The position numbers and the translations under genes were made by a program. A DNA stretch of 64,000 nt from Legionella massiliensis. Lineage in GTDB: Bacteria > Pseudomonadota > Gammaproteobacteria > Legionellales > Legionellaceae. This document shows positions 25,515-27,698 of this stretch, piece by piece (position 1 is the first letter of the stretch; the number at the start of each line of letters is the position of its first letter). Below the pieces are notes generated by a model. It was not told the DNA's origin and ran no database searches. It saw nothing but the letters and a program-made list of their open reading frames with translations. The DNA is taken from contig NZ_CCVW01000004.1 in assembly GCF_000756815.1 (NCBI RefSeq), forward strand, positions 372,001 through 436,000. Reading direction: 5' to 3'.

Positions 25515-26249
25515 CTAGCGCTTAACCCTTGCAACATATCCCCACTGACTTGACCAGGTTAACTGTTTGAGCTTTCTAGATTTCTTTAATACATCCAAAA
25601 AAGGATTAATTGTCTCCGAGTTCCGCGCAAAGACGATGATATTTGCAGAGTCTGGAACAGGCAGGACAACTGTCGAACGCAAGAACTGTTCTTGTATAAG
25701 CTGAAAAATACTTAAGTGCTCTCGGCTGTTTGCTAGATTTACAGCAAGGATTCCATCTGGTGCTAATAGCTCTTTAGATCGTGCAAAAAAATCAGGATTC
25801 GCACATTGTTCTGGGAAGCTATGCGCGGTATATAAATCAATTAAAAGATGGTCAAATTTCCTCCTACAGTTATTCAGATAGTTGCTGGCTTCATCATGAA
25901 TAATATCAATATTCTTTAGCTTATCAACCATGAAAAAGCGCTTAGCCAAATCAATGACTTCAGCACTATATTCAACAATAACTAACCTATCGGCAATAAT
26001 AGGTGAAAGCGCATGAGCGGCTCCACCGCCGCCAAGCCCTAGCATACAGCAGTTTTGCGGTTTTTGTTGTACAGATTGAATGAGGTATCTAAGGTAGTTT
26101 AATTGCGGTCTGTGTGGAGCAAAGCGGCATAATACAGTTTGTAAGGCCTTACTATTAAATTGTAACCAGCGGAAAAGGGGATTCTGTAATACACGTGTAC
26201 CCTCAGTAGATTGGTAGATACAACGGCCGGCAAACGTTTTCCAAATCAT
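25515..26249 (-). CDS. Spermidine-synthase-like methyltransferase-fold protein
   Basis: 244 residues. The Rossmann core has CCMLGLGGGGAAHALS, then VEYSAEVIDLAKRFF and IIHDEASNYL, with the DHLLIDLYT strand, as in the spermidine/spermine synthase superfamily. It lacks the N-terminal beta domain of true SpeE, so it may be an aminopropyltransferase-like or methyltransferase-like enzyme of unknown substrate. It is the last gene of the ast operon. Its ATG lies in the left copy of the 8-bp duplication flanking element D2. Before that insertion the start overlapped the astB stop as ATGA. No ribosome site is visible upstream now. Confidence 0.75.
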   Translation of the reverse strand: MIWKTFAGRCIYQSTEGTRVLQNPLFRWLQFNSKALQTVLCRFAPHRPQLNYLRYLIQSVQQKPQNCCMLGLGGGGAAHALSPIIADRLVIVEYSAEVIDLAKRFFMVDKLKNIDIIHDEASNYLNNCRRKFDHLLIDLYTAHSFPEQCANPDFFARSKELLAPDGILAVNLANSREHLSIFQLIQEQFLRSTVVLPVPDSANIIVFARNSETINPFLDVLKKSRKLKQLTWSSQWGYVARVKR

Positions 26250-26344
26250 CGTAATAGATCACTCCGTACTCAGGAAAGTCCACTTTCGACCTGGACTCAA
26301 AATTGAACTTTCTCCAAGATTTTTACATCCCACCTGAGCTATTA
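26250..26344. mobile_element. 95-bp palindromic element D2 with 8-bp target duplication
   Basis: Element CGTAATAGATCACTCC...GAGCTATTA, flanked by the direct repeat CAAATCAT at 26242-26249 and 26345-26352. Removing the element and one repeat joins astB and the downstream gene in an ATGA overlap. The same unit with a nested insert is D1 at 17238. Ends resemble the TAATAGGTCAC family. No transposase gene is in the window, so it must be moved in trans. Confidence 0.88.
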
Positions 26345-26348
26345 CAAA

Positions 26349-27698
26349 TCATTTTTGCTCACGTTGGAAAGGATAAATCGAACCTAACTGTAAAAGTTGG
26401 CTTAGTTCATCCAAAGTTACTAAACATTCATCAATCAATAAGGGATCAGCCAAATCGTTTGCATGCAGCTGATCACGGTAATGACGCTTCACCCAAGTTT
26501 CAAGTTGGTCTAATAACCTGTCGGTAACGACAATACCCTGGTGCATAGCTCGCAATTCTTGTTCGCTGAGTGGTACACGCAAACGCAAACAGGCTGGGCC
26601 GCCGCCATTACACATGCTTTGCTTAAGATCGAGGTAATTGACGCTAGCAATAGGGGTGTTTTTATCAGCAACTAATTCATCAATACATTGTTTTACAGCG
26701 GGACTATCCCTGCATTCAGTTGGCGCAATTAAAGTCATGCCAGCGTTATTAGGCAGGCTAATGAGCTGAGAGTTAAAGAGATAGGTACTGACAGCCTCAG
26801 CAACACTTACCCGCTGGCTATTAACTTCAATAATCTGAATAGGGAAGTCTGCACGGTCTTGTAGCGTTTTTAGGATTTCTGTTTGCTGAGCAAAGGCTTC
26901 TTCATGGAGAAGTAACAGTGATTCATTGGCAACAGCGATTACATCATTATGAAAGACGCCTTGGTCGATCGCTTTAGGATTTTGGCAGGCAAAGATAACC
27001 CTTTGCGGATCTAAGCCATGTGCTCGCGCAATGGCCTGAGAGGCCTCCAGCGTCTGCCGAGCAGGAAACTTCACAGGATGCTGTGCAGTATTTCTCAAAC
27101 CTTGCTTGCCATAGACAAAGAGATTAATCGCGGGTTTCCCATGTGCCGAGCAAAGACGGCTATGATTTGCTGCTCCTTCATCGCCGGTTATGAGGCTTTT
27201 GGGAAGCAAGGGATGGTGAGCAAAAAACCTATCATTATCAAATAGTTTTTCCAGTAACTGCCGTGAAAAATTAGCCTCCTGATGGCGATGCAAATTAGAA
27301 ACGAGATTGGCGGCAGTGAAATGAACACGATGATCAGCTGTATCCAGACTGGAGGAAACTGTCGCTGCATTAGCTGCCCACATATAAGAGGCGGAATAAC
27401 TTGCAGATAAAAGTTCAGGGGCTTCGAGGCTTGCTCTTTCGATTTGCTGAGCCGGAGAGCCGCTAAATCCTAATTGATCTAATAAAGCTAAATTAGGTCT
27501 TTGATGCGGGGGTAGCACGGCCTGTTTTAAACCTAATTGATGGAGCAAGCGCATTTTAGCGAGGCCTTGAAGGGCTGCGGCCTGCGGGTTTGAGGTTGAA
27601 AGTGCGTTCGTTGTTGAAGCCAGGTTGCCAGAGGCGAGACCTGCATAATTGTGTGTTGGCCCAACTAAACCATCAAGATTTAATTCAAAGAATTCCAT
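26349..27698 (-). CDS. astB: N-succinylarginine dihydrolase AstB
   Basis: 449 residues, as in E. coli (447). It starts MEFFELNLDGLVGPTHNYAGL and contains SNSR-like and NGGGPACLRLRVPL segments of the amidinotransferase-fold family; the catalytic Cys is expected in the MCNGGGP region or nearby C-terminus. It converts N2-succinylarginine to succinylornithine, CO2 and ammonia. It follows astD after 4 nt. Its TGA is in the right copy of the duplication made by element D2. Confidence 0.95.
   Translation of the reverse strand: MEFFELNLDGLVGPTHNYAGLASGNLASTTNALSTSNPQAAALQGLAKMRLLHQLGLKQAVLPPHQRPNLALLDQLGFSGSPAQQIERASLEAPELLSASYSASYMWAANAATVSSSLDTADHRVHFTAANLVSNLHRHQEANFSRQLLEKLFDNDRFFAHHPLLPKSLITGDEGAANHSRLCSAHGKPAINLFVYGKQGLRNTAQHPVKFPARQTLEASQAIARAHGLDPQRVIFACQNPKAIDQGVFHNDVIAVANESLLLLHEEAFAQQTEILKTLQDRADFPIQIIEVNSQRVSVAEAVSTYLFNSQLISLPNNAGMTLIAPTECRDSPAVKQCIDELVADKNTPIASVNYLDLKQSMCNGGGPACLRLRVPLSEQELRAMHQGIVVTDRLLDQLETWVKRHYRDQLHANDLADPLLIDECLVTLDELSQLLQLGSIYPFQREQK

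What the first reader, a model, noticed from the sequence alone, without database searches (positions are those of the whole stretch)
26242..26352. Mobile palindrome inserted into an ATGA stop/start overlap, with codons rescued by its target duplication
Element D2 (95 bp) is flanked by CAAATCAT on both sides. Without it, astB TGA and the ATG of the spermidine-synthase-like gene overlap as ATGA. The 8-bp duplication left the ATG in the left copy and the TGA in the right copy, so both proteins are intact. Coupling and the ribosome site of the downstream gene were lost, and a hairpin was placed between them.
Basis: seen in the sequence. Interest (0 to 1): 0.75.

Follow-up and report, generated by a model that had tools for sequence, protein, structure and literature searches.

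The report
Mobile DNA splitting two overlapping genes
A 95-base mobile DNA element landed where one gene's stop codon overlapped the next gene's start codon, and because such elements copy 8 target bases when they land, both genes kept their full protein sequence; a neat insertion of a recognisable transposon-derived type.

Summary
It belongs to a MITE superfamily, roughly 160 copies by my estimate, in a Legionellaceae genome; 34 of 75 terminus pairs examined carry an 8-bp duplication (at most 1 mismatch) against 0.6 by chance. Nearly the same termini and exact 8-bp duplications bound an intact 1592-1594-bp IS66-family insertion sequence, 4 of 4 copies, in two relatives, so an IS66-type transposase probably moved it. 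Overall 4 of 62 unnamed relatives examined show ATGA, all in one other genus; most of the rest have abutting genes. 'Ribosome site lost' is not supported: the astB-side sequence pairs no better than random with the anti-Shine-Dalgarno, whereas the element's end presents CGGAGTGA (-6.7 versus -2.4 kcal/mol), so a site may have been gained. The mRNA-strand hairpin is real; opening of it by a ribosome at the astB stop was not supported. New member of a known kind.

The parts
26251..26345 (.). 95-bp non-autonomous element (MITE), ends GTAATAG...CTATTAC, no room for a transposase
   Evidence: longest stop-free run 29 aa
26243..26250 (.). left target-site duplication copy AAATCATC; holds the ATG (minus strand) of the downstream gene
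26346..26353 (.). right target-site duplication copy AAATCATT; holds the TGA (minus strand) of astB
26349..27698 (-). astB, succinylarginine dihydrolase, 449 aa, open frame
   Evidence: PF04996, 653.5 bits
25515..26249 (-). spermidine-synthase-like gene, 244 aa, open frame; starts ATG ATT TGG
   Evidence: PF01564 28.6 bits, cut-off 22.9; a match in 22 of 22 genomes of the genus, own included, one of them a 43-aa piece at a contig end
26257..26265 (-). Shine-Dalgarno-like stretch GGAGTGATC (minus strand) in the element's end; GGAG ends 12 nt before the ATG
   Evidence: function inferred

Best explanation
A 95-bp MITE, of a superfamily whose ends match those of an IS66-family insertion sequence of relatives, transposed into the 4-nt ATGA overlap between astB and the spermidine-synthase-like gene. 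Staggered target cutting duplicated 8 bp. Because 8 is longer than the 4-nt overlap, a target register that contains the whole ATGA (5 registers do) leaves a complete stop on one side and a complete start on the other, so both proteins are unchanged. The genes are now 99 nt apart and the downstream start must be reached independently or by longer-range reinitiation; the element's own end puts an SD-like CGGAGTGA before the ATG. Shown: element, family, duplication, open frames, ATGA state in element-free relatives. Inferred: mobilisation by an IS66-type transposase, order of events, every effect on translation.
For: Ends and 8-bp duplications across the family. Intact 1592/1594-bp element with the 12-bp terminus GTAATAGGTCAC, exact 8-bp duplications in 4 of 4 copies and a single 470-aa transposase in two genomes of the same family, called IS66 by PF03050 and by NF033517 (276.6 bits, cut-off 180); the window element agrees with that terminus at 11 of 12 bases on the left and 10 of 12 on the right (sequences). 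Both duplicate copies read ATGATTT on the minus strand. Element-free L110 (L. erythra), L111 (L. rubrilucens) and L246-L249 read ATGATTTGG with the ATGA overlap. In 17 of 21 congeners astB stop and downstream ATG lie -1 to +9 nt apart.
Against: The duplication has one mismatch (26250 C, 26353 T), though 9 of 13 imperfect duplications of the family mismatch at an outermost base like this one (seen after the fact). No element-free strain of the same species was available; congeners (at most 61% protein identity over the full length) show no ATGA, and L. erythra and L. rubrilucens, which do, are 47 and 45% identical, so their ATGA may be a parallel state. The window's genome gave no match to the relatives' transposase (which warns that an empty answer shows little); of 14 IS66-profile places in it, 12 lay in stretches that I scanned, and none was bounded by such ends with a duplication (four lone terminus-like matches lay in two of those stretches, not as a facing pair around a transposase).
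Confidence: 0.87

Rival explanations
1. The element acts as a donor of a ribosome-binding site: its left end (minus strand ...TACGGAGTGATCTATTAC) gave the downstream gene a Shine-Dalgarno site that it had not had, replacing overlap coupling by independent initiation.
For: Anti-SD pairing -6.7 kcal/mol at the actual start against -2.4 at the astB-side copy; 6.6% of 3000 random 22-nt windows reach -6.7, 53% reach -2.4; none of the 21 congeners reaches -6.7 (best L042, -6.6). The ATG begins at the second base of the duplication next to the element, close to the nearest position possible.
Against: GGAG ends 12 nt before the ATG, longer than usual (recalled); the pairing has a bulge; 9 of 37 long ORFs of the window, taken from their first ATG, do as well or better; the site is partly paired in the predicted fold (mean 0.33 unpaired, ATG 0.06). 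A single case, no expression data.
Confidence: 0.3
2. The hairpin preserves coupling: a ribosome on the astB stop unfolds the base of the palindrome and exposes the downstream start.
For: The 5' arm begins within a few nt of the stop and the 3' arm ends 1 nt before the ATG; mRNA-strand fold -29.5 kcal/mol, z -2.4.
Against: A modelled ribosome at the stop raises mean accessibility of -20..+12 by only 0.035; 55 of 300 shuffled spacers do as much.
Confidence: 0.07
3. Neutral, tolerated insertion: the junction need not be coupled and a longer spacer is harmless.
For: Other relatives have also lost tight spacing: L032 118 nt, L045 219 nt, L038 no AstB within the locus; 5 of 30 in another genus have no co-oriented AstB in the locus, one of them at a contig start. 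In a simple ORF of 34 family copies had an ORF spanning it.
Against: 52 of 62 unnamed relatives keep the two genes within -4 to +14 nt (my count), which suggests some benefit of close spacing.
Confidence: 0.55
4. Chance direct repeat, no insertion.
For: Duplication imperfect.
Against: Family-wide 8-bp duplications, 34 of 75 against 0.58 expected; homologous copies elsewhere in the genome.
Confidence: 0.01

Closest known systems
IS66-family insertion sequences with a single transposase gene (ISBst12-like; label recalled)
   Same: 8-bp target duplication; terminus shared at 11 of 12 and 10 of 12 bases with the intact copies in G124 and G035, and the 12-mer GTAATAGGTCAC itself is frequent in the superfamily
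   Different: The window element has no transposase; no likeness beyond the ends was seen
Coxiella burnetii QMITEs (PMC5896051)
   Same: Non-autonomous palindromic elements with stable hairpin transcripts in another member of the order (order recalled); a case at a gene's 3' end changing its stop codon (passages seen)
   Different: The passages describe an in-frame extension and an altered stop, not a stop/start overlap split with both frames kept; sequence relation not tested
GTAG- and CGTC-tagged REPs (PMC3733652)
   Same: Short palindromes of bacterial genomes (passages seen); some other members of the superfamily here carry CGTCATCC or GGATGACG in their interiors
   Different: This element holds neither CGTC nor GTAG on either strand and has IS66-like ends and duplications

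Membership tests
MITE | terminal inverted repeats | tested here: met
   GTAATAG/CTATTAC at 26251 and 26345
MITE | target-site duplication of fixed length | tested here: met
   8 bp; 34 of 75 pairs with at most 1 mismatch, control 0.58; 7 of 8 bases at this copy
MITE | short, no transposase, many copies | tested here: met
   95 bp, longest stop-free run 29 aa; 28 places at E<=0.001; 399 termini with at most 1 mismatch against 82 for the control pattern
IS66 family (as derivative) | same ends and duplication length as an intact IS66 element | tested here: met
   4 of 4 intact copies in G124 and G035; the window element agrees at 11 of 12 and 10 of 12 terminal bases
IS66 family (as derivative) | internal sequence derived from the IS | tested here: inconclusive
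   First 40-60 bases of both ends compared by eye; no likeness beyond the termini seen; no alignment of the interior was made
IS66 family (as derivative) | transposition by the IS66 transposase in trans | not testable with these tools
   needs an experiment
CGTC/GTAG REP | CGTC or GTAG tag | tested here: not met
   neither tetranucleotide on either strand of the 95 bp
Rfam RNA family | match above gathering score | tested here: not met
   only t44 at 21430-21515 in the window

The most novel reading that the evidence does not exclude
Mobile elements whose target duplication is longer than the gene overlap can split overlapping genes without touching either protein, and this family's end carries an SD-like sequence, so that the insertion turned a coupled gene into one with its own ribosome site: a mobile translation-uncoupling cassette.
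Probability: 0.25. Interest if true: 0.6.

Novelty: new member of a known kind. Interest (0 to 1): 0.4.

Why it matters
It is a clean natural example of a simple rule: an 8-bp target duplication exceeds a 4-nt ATGA overlap, so such elements have 5 harmless landing registers inside the overlap, while elements whose duplication is shorter than 4 bp have none. It ties a large MITE superfamily of one Legionellaceae genome to an IS66-type transposase found intact in relatives, and makes the effect of uncoupling at an operon tail testable from data such as ribosome profiling.

Tried and rejected
Cognate transposase in the window's own genome: of 14 IS66-profile places, 12 lay in stretches fetched and scanned for GTAA...TTAC ends with 8-bp duplications; only inverted duplications of the region answered, no element bounded by such ends; a direct protein search gave nothing. 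A 1447-bp pair of termini in G001 first looked like the autonomous element; it has no 8-bp duplication (5 mismatches) and carries a broken transposase with rve domains (IS3-like, label recalled) whose own ends I read by eye inside the terminus pair, so it was set aside. Two long pairs of termini in the own genome (C2:130349-134215, C4:240302-242693) are ends of separate small elements.

Structural coupling by a ribosome at the astB stop: tested by partition function with 300 shuffles, not supported. Promoter or terminator in the element: none found by consensus scan. The named-genome search returned only 2 loci and was driven partly by the peptide MIWKTFAG, which favours junctions with ATG ATT TGG; the wider unnamed survey answers that bias. 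The junction scripts failed on L051 (reported -85; by eye TAAGGTATG, +3) and L255 (-19, not resolved). In one search at most 6 candidates per genome were scored, so absence there is weak.

Papers: PMC5896051 and PMC3733652, passages only. Listings only for searches. No paper of that library holds the string GTAATAGGTCAC. Of 9 papers that hold both 'miniature inverted-repeat transposable' and Legionella, none announces such an element of a Legionella genome in title or start of abstract; only PMC5896051 was looked into; one search returned none.

Full report
What is there. On the minus strand astB (449 aa, PF04996) is followed by a 244-aa spermidine-synthase-like gene (PF01564). Between the astB TGA (26351-26349) and the next ATG (26249-26247) lie 99 nt. 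They hold a 95-bp element, 26251-26345, with the ends GTAATAG and CTATTAC. Directly outside stand AAATCATC (26243-26250) and AAATCATT (26346-26353). The genome is placed in the Legionellaceae because G066, of the same family as the window's genome, has the protein of L. erythra (L110, 100%), a species of that family.

Is it more than chance? In the window and loci L001-L030, L082-L109 and L139-L198, all of this genome, 75 distinct terminus pairs were found; 21 have an exact 8-bp duplication and 34 one with at most one mismatch, against a mean of 0.58 (max 3) when right flanks are shuffled among elements; 4-7 and 9-12 bp give 0-5. These are not all the copies of the genome: 399 termini with at most one mismatch are present against 82 for the control pattern, from which I estimate about 160 elements. 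The subfamily of the window element matches 28 places at E<=0.001 in this genome and none in 21 congeners; 3 of 139 other genomes of the family gave weak partial matches to a sister copy, with few candidates scored per genome.

What moves it. The exact 12-mer GTAATAGGTCAC occurs in 31 of 140 genomes of the family, with 100 places in the window's genome, 40 in G136 and 6 in G124; the other genomes with a match have 1-3, which is within the range of the control pattern. In G124 (three copies, identical to each other over 1592 bp) and G035 (one copy, 1594 bp) it forms both ends of an element with exact 8-bp duplications, 4 of 4, and a single 470-aa transposase that scores 276.6 bits against NF033517, IS66 family transposase (cut-off 180), and matches PF03050. 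The two transposases are 91% identical. GTAA ends and 8-bp duplications are what I recall for IS66. The window element agrees with this terminus at 11 of 12 bases on the left and 10 of 12 on the right. It is best read as a MITE cross-mobilised by an IS66-type transposase that was not found in its own genome: one search was empty (and warns that this shows little); the IS66-profile places share only about 25% identity over at most 93 aa where compared, and 12 of these 14, scanned with their surroundings, are not bounded by such ends.

State before the insertion. Both duplicate copies read ATGATTT on the coding strand. In 21 congeners the downstream gene usually starts one codon later, at ATG TGG, and 17 of 21 have the astB stop -1 to +9 nt from that ATG (5 overlap by 1 nt, none ATGA); one more (L051) abuts by eye, L032 and L045 have 118 and 219 nt and L038 no AstB in the locus. 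Because ATT stands in both duplicate copies where those congeners have ATG, the shift to the upstream ATG predates the insertion. So the ATGA state occurs without the element, but it is a minority state: 4 of 62 unnamed relatives, and in no congener, so it could also be a parallel one.

Why both genes survived. A duplication of 8 bp around a 4-nt overlap has 5 registers in which ATGA is wholly duplicated; each then leaves stop and start complete. This is arithmetic, and survivors are what one sees. Of 34 elements with a good duplication, 25 have an ORF on both sides in a simple ORF call without annotation; among these it is the only one with a stop in one copy and a start in the other, and L197 is similar for two converging stops. 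One ORF (L168) spans its element and six reach into theirs (L083, L100, L103, L154, L161, L195).

Consequence for translation. The sequence upstream of the astB-side copy pairs with the anti-SD at -2.4 kcal/mol, typical of random sequence (53% of 3000 windows); the actual start, behind the element's end, reaches -6.7 (6.6%) with CGGAGTGA, GGAG ending 12 nt before the ATG; congeners range from -1.5 to -6.6. 9 of 37 long ORFs of the window do as well, median -4.9. So a site was rather gained than lost, though its spacing is long and the fold covers it in part. The mRNA-strand hairpin is stable (-29.5 kcal/mol, z -2.4; the other strand -17.3, z -2.0); with longer flanks z is -1.7. No terminator-like tail. 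The idea that a ribosome at the astB stop opens the start through the hairpin was tested and not supported (0.035; 55 of 300 shuffles as large).

Verdict. A real insertion of a MITE with IS66-like ends into a stop/start overlap, with both proteins kept by the duplication. The kind is known; the geometry is neat; effects on expression are untested.

Noticed in passing
window 25385-25494: A second element with GTAATAGGTCAC ... GTGACCTAATAA termini lies 20 nt beyond the stop of the same spermidine-synthase-like gene, so that gene has an element on either side (its duplication was not established).
   Followed up: no
window 17241-17414: A longer copy of the same subfamily (about 174 bp, 90-91% to the window element at both ends), suggesting that the 95-bp form is an internally deleted version.
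   Followed up: partly
34 elements: 9 of 13 imperfect 8-bp duplications mismatch at an outermost base (positions 1 or 8), binomial P about 0.001, noticed after the fact; perhaps variable cutting or repair at the element's edge.
   Followed up: partly
L083 391-699, L154 1198-1671: ORFs running into an element end on the TAA contained in its GTAATAG terminus, so the element may supply stop codons.
   Followed up: no
L032 (G015), between astB and the next gene: The 118-nt spacer holds an imperfect repeat of the astB 3' end (CAATTTACACTTT..AACGTGA), a different way of having lost the tight junction.
   Followed up: no
L112 1078-2524 (G001): A terminus pair whose left end begins like the right end of the relatives' IS66 element (GTAATAGGTCACCCCTAATAAACTTC) and which holds a foreign, broken transposase: probably an IS66 remnant hit by another insertion sequence.
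   Followed up: partly
G136, starts of 15 contigs: The terminus GTAATAGGTCAC lies 73-88 bases from the start of 15 contigs, as expected if a multi-copy insertion sequence broke the assembly.
   Followed up: no
window 44860-48400: A tandem pair of about 1.9 kb, 73-86% identical in stretches.
   Followed up: no
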